A DNA stretch of 64,000 nucleotides from a virus. The stretch spans positions 1 through 64,000 of IMG/VR virus record IMGVR_UViG_3300033148_007258; one strand, 5' to 3'. A model generated the notes under the pieces. The model was not told where the DNA came from. It searched no databases and was given only the letters and a program-made list of their open reading frames with translations. Shown in pieces: positions 584 to 53,380 of this stretch (its first letter is position 1; each line of letters begins with the position of its first letter). The translations under genes and the position numbers were made by a program.

Positions 584-2141
584 ATATACCATAGCGGGGG
601 CGGCGCTGTTTGTGATGTTCTGGGCGTTGCGGGTAAAATATCCATTGCTGGGCGATAATGTGGCGCGGGTCAAGGACACTGTTATCGGGAGCGACTTATC
701 ATACGGGTTCGGGCTGTATCATCTGGCGTATCTGCTGATGTCGTGGGTACATCCTGCGATTTCCGGCGAAACGGCTCTTGCGTTGACGCATGCGGCTTTG
801 GGCGTGGCGTATGTGTTTATCTGTTACGGCATTGCGCAACAGGGGCTTCCAGGACTGGCTGTGAGGGAAGGGTTTTTCAGGGTCGCCATATTTGCCGGGC
901 TGGTAACGTGCGGCGGCATACAGATATTTTTCGGCTATATTGAGGGATATGGGTTCGCAATGGCGGCAATGGCGCTGTATTTTTATCTGTGCCTGCGGTT
1001 TTTCAACGGGGAGGCGCATGTTTTGTTTCCGGTCGGCGCTTTCGTTGTGATGGCGCTCATGCACAAGCTGTGTATTATATTTCTGCCGTCTCTGGCGTAC
1101 CTGATTTACAAAGGATATGAGGACACGGAAGCGGCGCAGGGGCTAAAGTATCCGGTATTAGCCTGTATAACGCTCTTAGGGGGCTATGTGTACCTAACTA
1201 CCCCCAGGCTGTCTTTATCGCTTATAGCGGCTTCTACTGCGCCGTATGCGGTTTTTTCGTGGGCACATGTAAGCGAGTTCGCCAACGGGATGTTCCTTGC
1301 GACGCCGCTGTTTCCGTTGTTGCTACCGGCGATGTATTTAATCGCGTTGAATCGCGGGCGGATTGATTTCCGCGTGAAGTTCATGGGCGTAGCGGCGGCG
1401 TTCGCCTTGTTGTTCGTCATGCTTGCCAATTTCAATCTGGGTGCGTGCGACTGGGACTTGATGTCGTTCGCGGGTCTGCCGGTTGCAATGTTTGTACTCA
1501 TGACAGGGAGTACAAACTTTCGTGATATTCCATATACAACCATTCAGTATGTTCTCACTGTGTTCCTCTTGATTAGCGGCATAAATACTTTTTCATATAT
1601 TTGGGTAAACGCTTCGGAGTCATCCGCTGACCGGTTTACCGATATTGTGTTGACCGACCCGGCGAATTATTTCACGGCTCCGGGTCGGTCTGCGGAGAAT
1701 TACGCGGCGGTAGTGATAGACGGCAAAGTTCCGGGCGACAGGGCGTTAGAGTTACACAAGCAAGACCTCGCGAAGCACCCGGATCATCCGCGTGCATGGT
1801 TTAACGTGGGAATGCAATATCTGGAGATACAAGAGGATTCAACGGCGGCGTATCTTTTCCGGGAATCGTACAAGCGATTTTATGCTTACAGTCCGCCGTT
1901 TGTGGCGCTGGCGAAGATGGCGTTCATGCAGCGGGACACGGCGGCGTTCTTGGAATACAGCGAGCGCATCCGCGAGGTGTGTATTCTTGACCAGTATTTT
2001 GTGCCGCTCCGGGTGATAGGATTAGACAACGCTGCGGCGCAGTGCATGTATCAGGCGTACCAAATTTACATGGCACAGGGAGAACCGGAGACGGCAATCC
2101 TTTATGCGCAGTGGCTTTTTCAAAGGGGATATGTGAGATGA
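570..2141 (+). CDS. polytopic membrane protein, GT-C glycosyltransferase-like with C-terminal TPRs
   Basis: A 523-aa integral membrane protein with about ten hydrophobic segments over residues 5-345 and a soluble tail (about 385-523) that reads as tetratricopeptide-like helices (LAKHPDHPRAWFNVG). Three spots resemble bacterial GT-C-type proteins with TPR tails: an acidic GDN at 28-30 in the first loop, FGYIEGY at 121-127, and DWDLMSFAGLP at 294-304. Known GT-C enzymes use lipid-linked sugars on the outer face of the inner membrane. By inference this protein could alter host surface glycans. Its ATGA overlap with the next gene suggests coupling. A protein of this kind is unusual in a phage. 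The exact reaction cannot be read from sequence. Confidence 0.7.
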   Translation: MKLIKYTIAGAALFVMFWALRVKYPLLGDNVARVKDTVIGSDLSYGFGLYHLAYLLMSWVHPAISGETALALTHAALGVAYVFICYGIAQQGLPGLAVREGFFRVAIFAGLVTCGGIQIFFGYIEGYGFAMAAMALYFYLCLRFFNGEAHVLFPVGAFVVMALMHKLCIIFLPSLAYLIYKGYEDTEAAQGLKYPVLACITLLGGYVYLTTPRLSLSLIAASTAPYAVFSWAHVSEFANGMFLATPLFPLLLPAMYLIALNRGRIDFRVKFMGVAAAFALLFVMLANFNLGACDWDLMSFAGLPVAMFVLMTGSTNFRDIPYTTIQYVLTVFLLISGINTFSYIWVNASESSADRFTDIVLTDPANYFTAPGRSAENYAAVVIDGKVPGDRALELHKQDLAKHPDHPRAWFNVGMQYLEIQEDSTAAYLFRESYKRFYAYSPPFVALAKMAFMQRDTAAFLEYSERIREVCILDQYFVPLRVIGLDNAAAQCMYQAYQIYMAQGEPETAILYAQWLFQRGYVR

Positions 2142-6618: not shown

Positions 6619-6693
6619 AGCAGACCTCCGCAGTTGTTTCAAGCCTCGTCAGTGCCGGTATGTCCGGCAGACCGCCCGTAGGGGCGGTTTCGG

Positions 6694-6894
6694 CTACGAA
6701 AATAAAGGGCGCGCGCTCGTATACTCGGGCACAAGCCCCTCGTTCACGTCCCGCGCAAAAGCCCTCGCGGCTACGGGACGTGTAAACATAAACAACTCAG
6801 TGTGCGGCAAGTGCATCACGTTATGTGTTGCACTGCCACTTTCACAGGCGGCACAAGCAAGCACAACCTCAACTATATATTCTTTTGCATTCAT
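6694..6894 (-). CDS. hypothetical protein, 66 aa
   Basis: Start at 6894 with GGAGGTGTGAA upstream and an ATGA overlap with the gene before it (6891-7148). It begins MNAKEYIVEVVLACAACESG and continues HNVMHLPHTELFMFTRPVAA. Its first strand resembles the start of the 55-aa neighbour (SYIVKAVL), so the two may be distant paralogues. Function unknown. Confidence 0.68.
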   Translation of the reverse strand: MNAKEYIVEVVLACAACESGSATHNVMHLPHTELFMFTRPVAARAFARDVNEGLVPEYTSARPLFS

Positions 6895-10132: not shown

Positions 10133-10711
10133 ATGAACAGGCGAAAGGCTTTAAACGTATTAGGCGTCGGGGCATTAATGCCGGTTGCTACGTTTGGTGG
10201 GTTGAGTAAGATTTTTGGGTTAGGGGAAAAAGCGGGCGAATATGGATTGTCCAAATGGGGTAAATCTTTTCTTGCGTGTTCTTTTTATAGTCCGCACTAT
10301 AATTTTTATCATCGTTCATATTATGGTTTTCCAGGGATTATTGTGAACGATATGAATATGTCTATGATGGAGAACGTTGTTCGGTCTCTTTTGTTGGAAT
10401 GTCCTCAATATTGGGATTATGAGCATAGCTATCGTGATTTTGGTAAGGGGGAGGTTGTAGTCGAAAAGGAGATAGATGAACGCAACCGGCAAATGTTAAG
10501 GGCATATCAAAGGGCTGGTATTAAGAAACGGATTGCATGGGAGCCGAATTTGGGGCGGTTTAGTAATGAAAACAACTGGGGCTGGATGGATGATAGTGAG
10601 CGGAAAATCATTCTACTTGACAGGGGTATAATAAAAATAGCACAGGGCAACGCGAAAAATATTTTAAGACAACTGCCGTTGGATAAATTTTTGGGGATAA
10701 GCAATGGGTAG
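10133..10711 (+). CDS. Tat-leader exported protein, 192 aa
   Basis: AAAAGGAATTAAAATG precedes the start. The N-terminus MNRRKALNVLGVGALMPVAT is nearly the same as that of the gene at 8938 and has the RRxxLxxLGxGA pattern of twin-arginine signals, with a hydrophobic stretch to about residue 25. The mature part is rich in tyrosine and tryptophan (FYSPHYNFYHRSYYGFPG; then NNWGWMD) and has no recognised fold. The stop overlaps the phosphohydrolase gene by 8 bases. If the leader works, the protein is exported folded, perhaps with a cofactor. Confidence 0.7.
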   Translation: MNRRKALNVLGVGALMPVATFGGLSKIFGLGEKAGEYGLSKWGKSFLACSFYSPHYNFYHRSYYGFPGIIVNDMNMSMMENVVRSLLLECPQYWDYEHSYRDFGKGEVVVEKEIDERNRQMLRAYQRAGIKKRIAWEPNLGRFSNENNWGWMDDSERKIILLDRGIIKIAQGNAKNILRQLPLDKFLGISNG

Positions 10712-12344
10712 GGTTATGGTTTTGGGGATTGATGGATGCCCGGAAGAAATGCTAATGAAGTGGATGCTCGATGGCGGCGGTTGGTTACCGAATTTCAAGC
10801 GGCTGTATGATAGCGGTGCGTTTTTGACGATGCGAAGCACAGTTCCTTATTGGACGGTTCCGGCGTGGTTGTCGATGCTGACAGGGAAAACGCCGAAGCG
10901 GCTGAATGTGTTCGGGTTTTATCACCGGAAAAAGGAGTCGTATGAGAACGAACTGGTGAGGATTGACTGGGAAAAGCATAATCCTCTATGGCGGATACTA
11001 TCGGATGCCGGAAAGCGGTCGATTTTTGTGAACGTTCCCACCACAGAGCCGCCAACAAAGGGATTTAACGGCGCGATGGTCGGCGGCTCTATTATGAACC
11101 CCGATCCACATAGGATAGCCTATCCGGCGGGTCTTAACCGGTGGCTGCTTGAGCAAGGATATGTCGCGGACGATTATGCGTCTCTTGCCAACAACCCTAT
11201 TAAGCACGCCCGGAAAATGATTCGGGCGGATATGAAACGTATAGAGATAGCGAAACAGTTAATGGCCGATGTGTGGGATTTATTTATGTTCGCTTTTTAT
11301 TTCAGCGACCCGATTCTACACCGGTTCTGGAAGTATATTGACGAAAAACATAAGGATTATGAGGATAAGGGAGAGTGCCGCGAGGTTGTTTATGAGTATT
11401 TCAAGATGGTCGACGACTTTCTGGGATACTGCCTTGACCGGTTGCCTGCGGACGGGAACCTGTTTGTGGTGTCGGATCACGGTATGGGACAGCTTCGGTA
11501 TTTCGTTGACTTGAACAAGTGGCTATTTGACAATGGGTATATGGCGCTGAAAAACAAGGGGCGCAAGCGGTTCAATATGTATCATTTTCAGTATACGAGA
11601 CTGTATGACTGGTTGCGGCGGGCGTATCTGCCGTTCAGGGGTATTGGATTGGCTAAGGGGGTGCGGGATCGGGTATTTGGCGCGCTGCCAAAATGGGAAC
11701 GCACCAGCGCTGATGTTGACTGGGAGAGAACGAGGGCGTATAGCTTCGGGAAGGATTCCATATATTTTAATTTAAAAGGACGGGACCCGCAAGGGATGTA
11801 TTGGACAAAAAAGGGAACTTTGGGTTTGTATGGCAAAATATTAAAGAGTTTGCATTCTTTGCGCGATCCCGATACTGGCGAGTGTATTGTTTGGGATACA
11901 AAACACAATTGGCTTGTTGATACGATGCAAGCAAGGCTGTTGCCCGATATGTTTATTGAGTTCGAGGGCGGGTCGTACTATATCAGCAATCAGGGCGAGG
12001 CGGCGCCAGGGGGAAAGCTGTTTTATGAACGGAAAGAGACCAGCGCCGCGCATAAGCGGAACACGATATTTGTCGGGTACGGGCATGATATTGAGAAGAA
12101 AACGGGCGGTACGGTTGATATTTGCGATATTGCGCCGACCATATTGCACATGCTGGGCGTTCCGATACCCGATGACGTCGATGGCGAGGTGTTATCCGGG
12201 CTTTTTAGGGAAAAATCGCCGTTAAGGGGGCAAAAAGAGGTCAGAAAGAGCCGAAAAGCGGTGGCGCGGGACACGGAAGCGGCGGTTTCGGGCGAATCGG
12301 ACGCTGTGGTAGAGAAGCGGCTACGGGAACTGGGGTATTTATGA
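10704..12344 (+). CDS. AlkP-superfamily phosphohydrolase / type I phosphodiesterase (COG3379-like)
   Basis: A 546-aa protein with the ordered metal and catalytic motifs of the alkaline-phosphatase superfamily: GID (D10), STVPYWTVPAW with the likely nucleophile T51, SDPILHRFW (D202, H206), VVSDHGMG (257-262) and a C-terminal GHD/ICDIAPTILHMLGVP block. Family members hydrolyse phosphodiesters or transfer phosphate groups, including on envelope polymers. No signal peptide or membrane segment is visible, so it probably acts in the cytoplasm. It overlaps the Tat-leader gene and is probably co-transcribed with it. Enzymes of this type are not standard phage genes, so a moron or envelope-modifying role is plausible. 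Confidence 0.88.
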   Translation: MGRVMVLGIDGCPEEMLMKWMLDGGGWLPNFKRLYDSGAFLTMRSTVPYWTVPAWLSMLTGKTPKRLNVFGFYHRKKESYENELVRIDWEKHNPLWRILSDAGKRSIFVNVPTTEPPTKGFNGAMVGGSIMNPDPHRIAYPAGLNRWLLEQGYVADDYASLANNPIKHARKMIRADMKRIEIAKQLMADVWDLFMFAFYFSDPILHRFWKYIDEKHKDYEDKGECREVVYEYFKMVDDFLGYCLDRLPADGNLFVVSDHGMGQLRYFVDLNKWLFDNGYMALKNKGRKRFNMYHFQYTRLYDWLRRAYLPFRGIGLAKGVRDRVFGALPKWERTSADVDWERTRAYSFGKDSIYFNLKGRDPQGMYWTKKGTLGLYGKILKSLHSLRDPDTGECIVWDTKHNWLVDTMQARLLPDMFIEFEGGSYYISNQGEAAPGGKLFYERKETSAAHKRNTIFVGYGHDIEKKTGGTVDICDIAPTILHMLGVPIPDDVDGEVLSGLFREKSPLRGQKEVRKSRKAVARDTEAAVSGESDAVVEKRLRELGYL

Positions 12345-46245: not shown

Positions 46246-46956
46246 TTAAAACGAGATACCTAAGCTAAGGGGAATGTACTGCGTATTGTCATCGTCGGTA
46301 AAAATAATGCAATATCTGGCTTCGAGAAAGAGGTCTACATCGGGACTTATCGGAAAGAATAAACCCGCACCAATGTTCAGAATTGGCTTTGTTTCACTGT
46401 CACCATCAAGTGAAAAGGAATCGCCTCTGTAATAAAAAGATATGTCATCTATTGAAAAATAGTTTATTCCCATTCCCCCCAAAAGATAAAACTTGGTTGA
46501 ACTTTCTTTTGGTGATAATATTGTTTTCAGGCTTAATGTAGCAGATAAGGCAGAGGCGTTGGCACCACTAATTGTCAAGCCGGAAACATTTCTAATATTC
46601 ACACCGGACTCATCGCTTACCCAATCAAGAAAACCATCTTCATCAAATCCAAACATAATATAATGGCTATTTATATTTAAATAGAGGGTTTTCGTTAGCG
46701 GTATATTTGTGCTACCCAAAAACCCAAACCCATTGTTCCAACAATCGCCGAATTCATCAGGTGCGGAAGGAAATGAATATATAAAACCGAACCCCCCTTT
46801 AGTTTTAACCCCTTCTTTGTTTTGAGTTTCTTGCTCATTGGTTGTTTGTATTATCTGCGGCGGCGGCGCAATAGCCTCAACTTTGGTTAGAGAAGTATAT
46901 CCGCATTGCACAAAACTTGCGGACACGAATAAAGCAACGATTAAAAAACGCTTCAC
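46246..46956 (-). CDS. outer-membrane beta-barrel protein (lysogenic conversion candidate), 236 aa
   Basis: A GTG start at 46956 with GGAGGGTTTATT upstream. MKRFLIVALFVSASFVQC is a signal peptide; C18 could be lipidated, although the lipobox is poor. A linker (about 25-55) is followed by eight or so alternating amphipathic strands with aromatic girdles (GGFGFIYSFPSAPDEFGDCW; LYLNINSHYIMFGFDEDG; DLFLEARYCIIFTDDDN) ending in LSLGISF, the C-terminal aromatic typical of outer-membrane barrels. It lies 23 bases behind the repressor gene on the same strand, so it is probably made in the lysogen. Barrels of this kind could block phage adsorption or bind host factors. Confidence 0.8.
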   Translation of the reverse strand: MKRFLIVALFVSASFVQCGYTSLTKVEAIAPPPQIIQTTNEQETQNKEGVKTKGGFGFIYSFPSAPDEFGDCWNNGFGFLGSTNIPLTKTLYLNINSHYIMFGFDEDGFLDWVSDESGVNIRNVSGLTISGANASALSATLSLKTILSPKESSTKFYLLGGMGINYFSIDDISFYYRGDSFSLDGDSETKPILNIGAGLFFPISPDVDLFLEARYCIIFTDDDNTQYIPLSLGISF

Positions 46957-46979: not shown

Positions 46980-47414
46980 TTATTCTTCCTCACTACTGCT
47001 GCGGTATATAAACAGCATGTCGATATAATCCTGCTTTGTGGGTTTTTGATTGGCGCGGAAACAGATAGACTTCAACCACTGAACTTCGGCTTCATTGATA
47101 AACATCATACGCATAGTCTTTTCATCTTCGAGAAGTTCCCGCAGTCCGTCAGTGATACCGGTATATTCGGGGGCGGGTTCGTGGACGGCTGGTGGATCGG
47201 GTTCGGTGTTCTCTCTAAACAAGTCTTCCCATTTAATATTAAGCGCCCTTGCAAGTCCTTTAATGGTACTTACATGAAAATATGGTCTGTTGCCGTTTTC
47301 TAATTCAGATATAGTAGAGCGATCAATGCCAGAAATTTCTGCAAGTTTTTGTTGAGTCAACCTCTTGCCTTTCCTGAAAAAACGTATATTATCACCAATT
47401 TTTTTTGCGTCCAT
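46980..47414 (-). CDS. XRE-family phage repressor (CI-like), 144 aa
   Basis: Residues 6-60 (IGDNIRFFRKGKRLTQQKLA, EISGIDRSTISELENGNRPY) are a well-formed Cro/C1 helix-turn-helix. A proline-rich linker (about 72-88) joins a helical C-terminal domain. It is transcribed away from a divergent early promoter, the standard place of a lysogeny repressor. No self-cleavage (S24) domain is present, so induction must differ from lambda. No clear ribosome site precedes ATG 47414, so a leaderless message is possible. It probably binds TTGCGTA-type sites at 47441, 47526 and 7393. Confidence 0.9.
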   Translation of the reverse strand: MDAKKIGDNIRFFRKGKRLTQQKLAEISGIDRSTISELENGNRPYFHVSTIKGLARALNIKWEDLFRENTEPDPPAVHEPAPEYTGITDGLRELLEDEKTMRMMFINEAEVQWLKSICFRANQKPTKQDYIDMLFIYRSSSEEE

Positions 47415-50673: not shown

Positions 50674-50681
50674 TAACGGTT

Positions 50682-50921
50682 GAGCGAGTGGCGAAATTGG
50701 CAGACGCTATATCAATCCAGTAAATCTTGGTAAGGTCTACGAATTTTAGTGAAAAAAGGTTTGTTTGTGTACCTCTGAGTAGCTGATAACTGTGGATTGT
50801 GCAAGTATGGGGAGATGAAAATTAGAAGGAAAAGGGCAACTCCTATGCGGGTAGAAAATTAGACTAAATCACAAACCTACCCAAAGAAAGCCTACTGCGG
50901 GTTCGAGTCCCGCCTCGCTCT
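50682..50921 (+). tRNA. tRNA-Leu-like gene with ~170-nt insertion between D and T arms
   Basis: The ends form a perfect tRNA frame. The acceptor stem is GAGCGAG (50682-50688) with CTCGCTC (50914-50920), the D arm is TGGCGAAATTGGCAGACGC (a tRNA-Leu hallmark), and the T arm is GCGGG-TTCGAGT-CCCGC (50897-50913). Instead of an anticodon arm and variable loop there are about 170 bases that fold on themselves. TTGGTAAGG (50728-50736) pairs with CCTACCCAA, with bulges, and GTTTGTG with CACAAAC. An intron is the simplest reading, but I cannot find the group I core, and no anticodon can be assigned. Confidence 0.55.
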
Positions 50922-51276: not shown

Positions 51277-51436
51277 AGTCTACATTTATCGCTGCCCGCG
51301 GTGCGGTAAAGAGTATCCGTTAAGAGCGCGCGGGATTATCTTTGTCTCCTGCCGGTGCGGCGTGGAGATGCAGTTCGTGAGAACAGAGACCGAAGCCAAG
51401 AGTAAAAAGCCAGAGGAAAAAGCAAATGTCGAATAA
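51269..51436 (+). CDS. zinc-ribbon small protein, 55 aa
   Basis: ATG at 51269 lies 8 bases inside the previous gene, behind AGAAGGTGGATAAAC. It reads MAKVYIYRCPRCGKEYPLRA, then VSCRCGVEMQFV and a charged tail. CPRC at 9-12 and CRC at 28-30 make a short ribbon. It overlaps the next gene by 11 bases. Small zinc ribbons are frequent in this genome. Confidence 0.72.
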   Translation: MAKVYIYRCPRCGKEYPLRARGIIFVSCRCGVEMQFVRTETEAKSKKPEEKANVE

Positions 51437-51611
51437 CCAACGCATCACCCGCGAGCAAGCCGCTCACCGTCTTGGTGTGTCGGTGAAGCATGTTGACCGG
51501 CTTATAGCGGGCGGGTGGATTAAGGCAATTAATGTTTCTACGAGCGGGCGCAGATGTGTCCGCATTTCTACATCCAGCATCGACCAGTATGAACAAAAGG
51601 CGGCGATATGA
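51426..51611 (+). CDS. excisionase-like MerR/HTH_17 DNA-binding protein, 61 aa
   Basis: RITREQAAHRLGVSVKHVDR, LIAGGWIKAINVSTSGRRCV, RISTSSIDQY is the standard short winged-helix excisionase layout: helix, turn, recognition helix, wing and a final strand. Such proteins bend attachment-site DNA and steer the integrase towards excision. It lies two genes before the integrase gene with overlapping ends, which supports that role. Confidence 0.82.
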   Translation: MSNNQRITREQAAHRLGVSVKHVDRLIAGGWIKAINVSTSGRRCVRISTSSIDQYEQKAAI

Positions 51612-51892
51612 CAACCAGCGAAGAATATTTCACCGATTCCCCGATACATCCAGGGGAATATCTGCGAGACTTTATTAAGGAAATAAAAATCACGTCAAAA
51701 CAATTGGCTCAACAACTGGAAATAGATGAGCAAACCTTAAGGGCGATACTGGATGGTAAGTCGCCTATTACTTCGCCAATAGCTGAACGTTTGGGGGATA
51801 TATCGGAAATTCCTGCATGGTTTTGGAATAGGTTGCAAATCCATTATGATACAAACCGCGAATATAATTTATGGCGGCGGCGACATGAATAG
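51608..51892 (+). CDS. HigA-type XRE protein, 94 aa
   Basis: SPIHPGEYLRDFIKEIKITS, KQLAQQLEIDEQTLRAILDG, KSPITSPIAERLGDIS, then PAWFWNRLQIHYD is the diagnostic HigA (VapI) antitoxin pattern, including HPGE..L, the helix-turn-helix and the W-x-x-LQ tail. No HigB-type toxin is next to it, so it is probably an orphan that acts as a regulator of the xis-int operon. ATGA overlap with the excisionase-like gene. Confidence 0.85.
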   Translation: MTTSEEYFTDSPIHPGEYLRDFIKEIKITSKQLAQQLEIDEQTLRAILDGKSPITSPIAERLGDISEIPAWFWNRLQIHYDTNREYNLWRRRHE

Positions 51893-53012
51893 TATCGCTT
51901 TACAAAACGGTTCAATATACCTGAAGAGCCGCCAGGGGCAACAAGAGCCGTACTGGTATTATCGGCGGCGAATTGGAAAAAAGTATGTGCTACGGGCACT
52001 GAAAACACACGACCCTGAGGAGGCTAAGCGTCGCGCAGGACGATACTGGGACTGGATGACAAACGCCGAATTGATTTCCAATAAAAATATTCGAGCACCG
52101 CAGAAAAAGCTGCGGACATTTAAGGACGTTTACGGTCAGTATATTGCCGAAGTACGTGACGGGGCATTTGATAATCGACGCACCACCGTTTTGTCGAAAG
52201 AATGCATCTATCGGGTTTTGTTCAAGCACACAGAAATCGGCAACATGCTGATTGACCAGATTACCGTTGCCGACATCGGTCTTGCTCTTAATACAATCAA
52301 GCGCGAACGAGGCATGTCGGGCGCACGTAGAAACCGATATCGTTCTGAGCTTCGGCGATTCTTCAACTATGCCATTACTCTCGGTGTTGTTGAACACAAT
52401 CCCGTAATTAAAACAACGCACCTCCCGGAAAACAAGCAGCGTAAAAATTTCCACCTGTTTACGCCGGAAGAAATCCGCAAGCTATTTGAGGCGGCGAGGC
52501 AATATCCGAAAGGCGACACAAAGCTCCCCCTGCTGGCACTGGCATATTATACCGGAATGCGTATCAGTGAAATCCTGAGTCTGCAACTGGACAGTATTAA
52601 TCTTGAAACAGGGGAAATGGCTTATTATTCGTCTAAAACACGCAAGGAAATGTATGTGTTTATAGCCGATAAGCTACGGGATATATTGCGGGAGTACATA
52701 GCTACTTTACCAGAAGATTCGGTTTGGCTGTTTCCGGCAGACCGCAGCGCGGGACATCTTGTCTATGCGCGGTCGCAATGGCGACGCCTTATCAAAGATG
52801 CGGGGATCAAACATATACCGGACAGGGCTTGGCATACGTTCCGGCACGGGTTCATAACGCGGATGCTGGAAATGGGCGTTCCTCCCTCCGTGATTGCACA
52901 GTTTACGGGACAAACGGTTGCAATCATCGAGAGGGTTTATAACTGGATCGGGGAAAACAAAGACCTCTTGCGGGGGGTAATGAAAAAATATGAGGAATCA
53001 GATAACACATAA
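51885..53012 (+). CDS. int: tyrosine-type integrase
   Basis: 375 aa from ATG 51885; the upstream in-frame ATG at 51846 lies in the HigA-like gene. An N-terminal arm-binding domain (about 1-65) and a core-binding SAM-like domain (about 75-170) precede the catalytic domain. The catalytic set is R226 in TGMRISE, K251 in SSKTRKE, H317 and R320 in HTFRH, and nucleophile Y352 in ERVYNW. The usual second histidine is Q343 (TGQTV). The gene abuts an attP-like site with a tRNA-Arg 3' half and arm-type repeats, so it probably integrates the phage at that tRNA gene. Confidence 0.93.
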   Translation: MNSIALQNGSIYLKSRQGQQEPYWYYRRRIGKKYVLRALKTHDPEEAKRRAGRYWDWMTNAELISNKNIRAPQKKLRTFKDVYGQYIAEVRDGAFDNRRTTVLSKECIYRVLFKHTEIGNMLIDQITVADIGLALNTIKRERGMSGARRNRYRSELRRFFNYAITLGVVEHNPVIKTTHLPENKQRKNFHLFTPEEIRKLFEAARQYPKGDTKLPLLALAYYTGMRISEILSLQLDSINLETGEMAYYSSKTRKEMYVFIADKLRDILREYIATLPEDSVWLFPADRSAGHLVYARSQWRRLIKDAGIKHIPDRAWHTFRHGFITRMLEMGVPPSVIAQFTGQTVAIIERVYNWIGENKDLLRGVMKKYEESDNT

Positions 53013-53020
53013 ATCATGTG

Positions 53021-53060
53021 GACTGGAACGGACTGGAACGGACTGGAGCGGACTGGAAGA
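53021..53060 (+). repeat. four tandem 10-bp arm-type repeats (GACTGGAACG)
   Basis: Units are GACTGGAACG, GACTGGAACG, GACTGGAGCG and GACTGGAAGA. Two inverted copies lie beyond the tRNA-like core at 53312-53331. These are probably the sites bound by the integrase N-terminal domain. Confidence 0.8.
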
Positions 53061-53073
53061 TACCACTGTTTTT

Positions 53074-53094
53074 GTTTGTACTGTAGTTTGTACT
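53074..53094 (+). repeat. paired GTTTGTACT sites, left arm
   Basis: GTTTGTACT at 53074-53082 and again at 53086-53094, 12 bases apart. The same motif occurs as a pair 12 bases apart in the right arm (53358-53365 and 53370-53380). One turn of spacing suggests a protein that binds side by side, such as the excisionase-like protein or a second integrase surface. Confidence 0.7.
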
Positions 53095-53151
53095 CACTCC
53101 GCCGAAACGAGGGATAAGGCGGGAAACAGTTCGTGCTTAATCCGTGCTTGT

Positions 53152-53192
53152 ACGCCAGGAAGGACTCGAACCTTCAACCTACGGCTTAGAAG
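53152..53192 (-). other. attP core: 3' half of tRNA-Arg(UCU)
   Basis: On the minus strand the sequence runs CTTCTAA (anticodon loop with UCU), GCCGT, AGGTT, the T arm GAAGG-TTCGAGT-CCTTC, then acceptor strand CTGGCGT. The bases before CTTCTAA do not pair with the anticodon stem, so identity with a tRNA gene begins at the anticodon loop, which is the usual crossover zone of tyrosine integrases. Insertion would restore the 3' end of the host tRNA-Arg gene. Confidence 0.82.
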
Positions 53193-53311
53193 TCCTTTGT
53201 TGTATTACCCGCAACTGAACACTCCCGAACAAGCTAAATCGTTACACACATTGAAGTTACACGGTATTGCACCACCGGATTTTGGGCGCATTCGGCGAAA
53301 AGGCAATGTTC

Positions 53312-53331
53312 TTTTCCAGTCCGTTCCAGTC
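53312..53331 (-). repeat. two inverted arm-type repeats, right arm
   Basis: CGTTCCAGTC (53322-53331) is the exact inverse of the left-arm unit GACTGGAACG; TTTTCCAGTC (53312-53321) is a partial copy. Together with 53021-53060 they bracket the core. Confidence 0.78.
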
Positions 53332-53357
53332 CATATCAAGCACGCACAAAAAATAAA

Positions 53358-53380
53358 GTTTGTACCCGTGTTTGTACTCA
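53358..53380 (+). repeat. paired GTTTGTAC sites, right arm
   Basis: GTTTGTAC at 53358-53365 and GTTTGTACTCA at 53370-53380. The second copy shares GTTTGTACTCA with the left-arm site at 53086-53096. Same spacing of 12 and same orientation as on the left. Confidence 0.7.

What the first reader, a model, noticed from the sequence alone, without database searches (positions are those of the whole stretch)
53021..53380. Complete attP-like site with two families of arm repeats around a tRNA-Arg(UCU) half
The core (53152-53192) is the 3' half of tRNA-Arg(UCU) from the anticodon loop onward. Four GACTGGAACG repeats lie on the left and two inverted copies on the right. A second motif, GTTTGTAC, occurs as a pair 12 bases apart on each side. 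This is an unusually readable integration site, and it predicts the host target. Phage genes on both sides mean the sequenced molecule was probably not integrated.
Basis: partly seen in the sequence, partly recalled or inferred. Interest (0 to 1): 0.75.

Follow-up and report, generated by a model that had tools for sequence, protein, structure and literature searches.

The report
Phage attP at tRNA-Arg, arms reassigned
This is the spot where a temperate phage splices itself into a bacterial tRNA-Arg gene; it is a well-preserved but ordinary kind of site, and comparison with other phages suggests that the integrase grips the GTTTGTAC pairs rather than the showier 10-bp repeats singled out first.

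Summary
A tyrosine integrase gene (51885-53012) ends 8 bp before a 360-bp attP whose core (53152-53192) is the 3' half of a tRNA-Arg(UCU), anticodon loop onward. The record is 67,996 bp with a 114-bp terminal direct repeat, phage genes on both sides and no tRNA gene called, so it is an unintegrated genome. Both repeat families are far beyond chance. The GACTGGAACG copies are less perfect than stated (three exact, three degenerate). The implied reading that integrase binds these 10-bp repeats is probably wrong. A separate IMG/VR phage, with an integrase only 19% identical, carries the same GTTTGTAC pairs, 12 bp apart, direct, on both sides of another tRNA half, without the 10-bp repeats; seven further phages show the same direct-pair geometry with other sequences (shuffles 0/2000). 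GTTTGTAC is therefore the likely integrase arm site. The 10-bp array, four left and two inverted right, is best explained as the binding array of the adjacent L5-type excisionase, but that is inference. The host was not found, so the attB prediction remains untested. A new member of a known kind; modest interest.

The parts
51426..51611 (+). xis-like gene: 61-aa HTH_17 excisionase family protein
   Evidence: TIGR01764 excise 29.0 bits (cut-off 28.8); PF12728 HTH_17 30.4 bits (cut-off 27); best phage matches are annotated excisionases/HTH proteins of cluster A mycobacteriophages, 45% over 49 aa, E 0.01
51608..51892 (+). HigA-family antitoxin-like HTH protein between xis and int
   Evidence: TIGR02607 57.2 bits, cut-off 47.7
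51885..53012 (+). tyrosine integrase, 375 aa from the ATG that overlaps the higA-like stop (ORF open from 51846); R239, R333, H334, Y365 (numbering of the 388-aa ORF) conserved; Q where the usual second His stands
   Evidence: PF00589 82.8 bits, PHROG_1 187 bits, alignment
53020..53058 (+). left 10-bp array: four tandem GGACTGGA units; proposed excisionase (RDF) binding array
   Evidence: function inferred
53074..53093 (+). left integrase arm-type pair GTTTGTAC-tgta-GTTTGTAC, 12-bp spacing
   Evidence: same motif in L063 attP
53132..53150 (+). CGTGCTT repeated 11 bp apart beside the core (inverted copy at 53337); role unknown
53152..53192 (-). attP core: 3' half of tRNA-Arg(UCU), anticodon loop CTTCTAA (53186-53192) to acceptor stem; crossover placed in the anticodon loop by inference
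53314..53332 (-). right 10-bp array: two inverted GGACTGGA units; 22 of 23 bases of 53314-53336 mirror 53016-53038
   Evidence: I2, I3
53358..53377 (+). right integrase arm-type pair GTTTGTAC-ccgt-GTTTGTAC, 12-bp spacing, same orientation as the left pair

Best explanation
The stretch is the attP of a temperate phage. The integrase made by the gene just upstream binds the two GTTTGTAC pairs (one pair per arm) with its N-terminal domain and the tRNA-like core with its catalytic part. It recombines the core with the same sequence in the host's tRNA-Arg(UCU) gene, most likely in the anticodon loop. After integration the phage copy of the 3' half completes the host tRNA at the int-side junction, so the tRNA stays functional, and the displaced 3' half marks the other end. 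The 10-bp GGACTGGAAC array is most likely the array on which the neighbouring L5-type excisionase assembles to switch the reaction to excision. Shown: sequence features, gene families, self-closing record, shared motif and geometry in other phages. Inferred: which protein binds which repeat, crossover position, tRNA repair, direction control.
For: Integrase and excisionase families. Core matches a full tRNA-Arg(UCU) at 39/41. L063, an IMG/VR phage with a 19%-identical integrase, has GTTTGTAC pairs 12 bp apart, direct, starting 10 and 234 bp after the int stop, on either side of a tRNA 3' half that also begins at the anticodon loop (GAA), and no GACTGGAACG. In 24 other integrase loci, 8 (L063, phiMa, Roos, CR191, Lrm1, GIW2016, 42E, iA2) show a direct pair with 11- or 12-bp spacing repeated 171-273 bp further on, downstream of int; none shows an inverted set; 0 of 2000 shuffles. 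CrimD, L5 and Giles arm sites are reported as pairs flanking the core (PMC3203893). For the array: the HTH_17 factor RdfS binds 40 bp of attP as a tetramer, one protein per 10 bp (PMC11963761), the size and period of the left array. About half of mapped tRNA-gene islands are anticodon-centred (PMC4383910).
Against: No host attB, attL or attR was found. Tandem 10-bp spaced sites can be integrase sites: an array of that period lies downstream of the epsilon34 core, and both integrases match DUF6538 weakly. An excisionase array on both arms in inverted orientation would be unusual; the Kampy region, with the nearest excisionase relative, has no GACTGGAA. L063 was found by searching for the motif, so the shared motif, though not its double-pair geometry around a tRNA core next to int, was selected for.
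Confidence: 0.68

Rival explanations
1. One reading: the 10-bp GACTGGAACG repeats are the integrase arm sites (tandem on one side as in lambda, inverted between arms as in CrimD), and GTTTGTAC is bound by the excisionase or another protein.
For: A 10-bp tandem array also lies downstream of the epsilon34 argU core; both integrases give weak DUF6538 matches; inverted arm pairs are reported in CrimD.
Against: GTTTGTAC pairs, not the 10-bp repeats, recur with an integrase and a tRNA core in L063; direct 11-12 bp pairs recur in seven more phages, inverted 10-bp sets in none.
Confidence: 0.2
2. Both families are contacted by the integrase, or by integrase plus a host factor, in a two-layer arm system.
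For: Both families occur on both arms and nowhere else as paired sets in the genome.
Against: No second arm family was seen in any of the 24 comparison loci; one N-terminal domain normally reads one arm sequence (established knowledge of lambda Int).
Confidence: 0.08
3. The 23-bp inverted repeats 53016-53038 / 53314-53336 are the ends of a small mobile insertion and have no role in recombination.
For: 22 of 23 positions mirror each other, a little beyond the 10-bp units.
Against: No target duplication is visible at the ends; no other copy in the genome; the insert would have to contain the core and the left arm pair but not the right arm pair.
Confidence: 0.04

Closest known systems
attP of IMG/VR phage IMGVR_UViG_3300031760_000293 (L063)
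   Same: int, then GTTTGTAC pair, tRNA 3' half from the anticodon loop, second GTTTGTAC pair; same order, orientation and 12-bp spacing
   Different: GAA-anticodon (Phe-like) tRNA, 224 instead of 284 bp between pairs, no 10-bp array, integrase only 19% identical
Salmonella phage epsilon34 attP (argU, tRNA-Arg UCU)
   Same: core is the 3' half of tRNA-Arg(UCU) from the anticodon loop, 17 bp downstream of int, same orientation
   Different: integrase about 19-22% identical; no GTTTGTAC; no equal-spaced double pair found
Arm-type pairs of mycobacteriophages L5, Giles, CrimD and (found here) Kampy
   Same: pairs of short repeats on both sides of a tRNA or tmRNA core; Kampy encodes the nearest relative of this Xis
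   Different: different motifs; CrimD pairs are inverted between arms
RdfS of ICEMlSym-R7A (HTH_17 recombination directionality factor)
   Same: same HTH group as the Xis here; one protein per 10 bp over about 40 bp of attP
   Different: RdfS site was found in one place in attP, without a strict 10-bp consensus; binding is not shown here

Membership tests
tRNA-targeting tyrosine-integrase attP | adjacent tyrosine recombinase gene | tested here: met
   51885-53012, PF00589 E 3e-23
tRNA-targeting tyrosine-integrase attP | core is a tRNA 3' part reaching the acceptor stem | tested here: met
   39/41 to a complete tRNA-Arg(UCU)
tRNA-targeting tyrosine-integrase attP | arm-type repeats on both sides of the core | tested here: met
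tRNA-targeting tyrosine-integrase attP | matching attB in a host tRNA gene; attL and attR in a lysogen | tested here: inconclusive
   no exact core copy in genome contigs or viral contigs; host unknown
lambda-type bivalent tyrosine integrase | catalytic residues | tested here: met
   R239, R333, H334, Y365 invariant in alignment; the usual second His is Gln
lambda-type bivalent tyrosine integrase | N-terminal arm-binding domain | tested here: inconclusive
   DUF6538 only below cut-off, 21.9 of 27 bits; structure model unusable, pLDDT 40
L5/RdfS-type excisionase (HTH_17) | HTH_17 / excise domain encoded near int | tested here: met
L5/RdfS-type excisionase (HTH_17) | binds the 10-bp repeat array | not testable with these tools
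   needs gel shift or footprint
tRNA-dependent lysogeny (short core, phage-encoded tRNA; PMC10865867) | core of about 10 bp that does not rebuild the tRNA, plus a phage tRNA of the same isotype | tested here: not met
   core spans about 41 bp of tRNA and no tRNA gene is called in the genome

The most novel reading that the evidence does not exclude
The attP carries a mirror-arranged excisionase array on both arms (four units left, two right), so that the direction switch acts on both prophage ends through a sequence-readable 10-bp filament code, layered over a GTTTGTAC integrase arm code shared by very distant integrases.
Probability: 0.22. Interest if true: 0.45.

Novelty: new member of a known kind. 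Interest (0 to 1): 0.3.

Why it matters
Arm-type and excisionase sites are usually mapped one phage at a time at the bench. Here the two kinds could be told apart by comparison alone: a direct pair 11-12 bp apart, repeated 170-290 bp on, lies just after int in nine of the 25 loci examined, so likely arm sites and the tRNA target can be read from raw sequence of uncultured phages. The phage itself has no close relative in the collections searched, and the site predicts how it enters its host.

Tried and rejected
Relatives by integrase, terminase, DnaB and capsid peptide patterns: none in viral contigs, and for the integrase none in genome contigs. Exact core in viral and genome contigs: none; the genome pattern ended in GCGTA, which may lie beyond the shared block, so that blank is weak. 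Arm-array pattern in IMG/VR: 10 hits, none with an integrase, a tRNA or GTTTGTAC, read as chance. Integrase structure: pLDDT 40, discarded, no fold search made. Alignment-based locus search: alignment not conserved enough. Resemblance of the core T-arm sequence GACTCGAACC to the 10-bp unit (2 mismatches, 53163): by my estimate expected by chance in about 3% of cases, not used. GTTTGTAC as a repressor operator: exact copies elsewhere are only at 1490, 1510 and 14826, not upstream of the repressor or of xis. IHF consensus sites in the attP: none found.

Full report
What is there. The window is part of a 67,996-bp virus record whose first and last 114 bases are identical, so the assembly closes on itself. 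It carries terminase, portal, major head protein, replicative helicase, helicase loader and methyltransferase genes. ARAGORN calls no tRNA in it.

The integration module. Three overlapping genes run rightwards: an excisionase-family HTH_17 protein (51426-51611), a HigA-family antitoxin-like protein (51608-51892) and a tyrosine integrase (51885-53012). The excisionase's nearest phage matches are excisionases or HTH proteins of cluster A mycobacteriophages (45% over 49 aa, E 0.01). The integrase is divergent: best phage matches are 24-26% identical. Its conserved residues include R239, R333, H334 and Y365; a Gln replaces the usual second His.

The attP. The core 53152-53192, read on the minus strand, is CTTCTAAGCCGTAGGTTGAAGGTTCGAGTCCTTCCTGGCGT. 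It matches 39 of 41 bases of a complete tRNA-Arg(tct) in contig L022. Likeness to tRNA starts at the anticodon loop. Counts in Islander (PMC4383910) make the anticodon loop one of the two common crossover places. Because the tRNA reads towards int, the rebuilt tRNA would lie at the int-side end of the prophage (inference from orientation).

The repeats. GGACTGGA occurs four times at 10-bp steps left of the core and twice, inverted, on the right; as GACTGGAACG three of the six are exact. GTTTGTAC occurs as an exact pair 12 bp apart on each side, all four in one orientation. Neither arrangement is chance.

Who binds what. The deciding evidence came from elsewhere. A scan of IMG/VR for GTTTGTAC-N4-GTTTGTAC gave 78 contigs, most of them probably chance. 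In one, L063, the pair lies 10 bp after an integrase stop codon, a second pair lies 224 bp further on, and between them lies the 3' half of a GAA-anticodon tRNA starting at the anticodon loop. That integrase is only 19% identical to ours. It has no 10-bp array. I then looked, without naming a motif, for two equally spaced pairs of any 7-mer around int in 25 loci: nine, including this window and L063, show a direct pair spaced 11 or 12 bp, repeated 171-284 bp on, always downstream of int; only this window shows an inverted set; 2000 shuffled regions gave none. Kampy, with the nearest excisionase relative, also has an arm-like pair spaced 12 bp (CGTGACCCTCA). GTTTGTAC therefore has both the geometry and the recurrence expected of integrase arm sites.

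The 10-bp array. The adjacent Xis belongs to the HTH_17 family. RdfS, of the same HTH group, binds a 40-bp stretch of attP as four proteins, one per 10 bp (PMC11963761). The left array is four units of 10 bp. This is the best guess for the array, not a demonstration: 10-bp-spaced repeats also occur downstream of the epsilon34 core, where they may be integrase sites, and the inverted right-hand copies are not explained by the RdfS picture. I put about 0.45 on excisionase for the array and 0.7 on integrase for GTTTGTAC.

What is not known. The host was not found. The core is absent as an exact match from the species genomes and from other viral contigs, and no bacterial lineage could be opened for search from a virus record. 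So the claim that the phage enters a tRNA-Arg(UCU) gene rests on the core alone.

Placing it. Integration into tRNA-Arg(UCU) from an attP of this layout is known, for example epsilon34 at argU. Paired arm sites are known (PMC3203893). This is a clean new example in a phage without close relatives, with a corrected reading of which repeats the integrase most likely uses.

Noticed in passing
window 50681-50921 (+): Split tRNA-like gene: GAGCGAGTGGCGAAATTGGCAGACGC and GCGGGTTCGAGTCCCGCCTCGCTCT form a perfect Leu-type acceptor, D arm and T arm, separated by about 190 nt with group-I-intron-like stretches; ARAGORN and Rfam call no tRNA or intron and the fold is not unusual.
   Followed up: partly
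window 6637-6695 (-): Hammerhead type II ribozyme match, 36.7 bits against a gathering score of 37, E 8e-4.
   Followed up: no
window 53132-53150 (+) and 53337-53344 (-): Third motif in the attP, CGTGCTT(G), twice 11 bp apart beside the core and once inverted in the right arm.
   Followed up: partly
window 46246-46956 (-): Outer-membrane beta-barrel-like protein (PF13505, 27.0 bits, just under cut-off) beside a Cro/C1-type repressor at 46980-47414 (-): possible lysogenic conversion gene and a hint of a Gram-negative host.
   Followed up: no
window 10704-12344 (+): Type I phosphodiesterase / nucleotide pyrophosphatase family protein (PF01663, E 8e-32) in a phage genome.
   Followed up: no
window 51608-51892 (+): HigA-like antitoxin without an obvious HigB beside it, placed between and overlapping xis and int.
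   Followed up: no
window 1490-1520: GTTTGTACTCA and an inverted near copy 17 bp apart inside the 523-aa ORF 570-2141.
   Followed up: no
L035 783-1093 and L055 9839-10054: IMG/VR contigs with long 12-bp tandem arrays of GTTTGTACnnnn in two blocks; no integrase hit in the stretch held with the HMM used.
   Followed up: no
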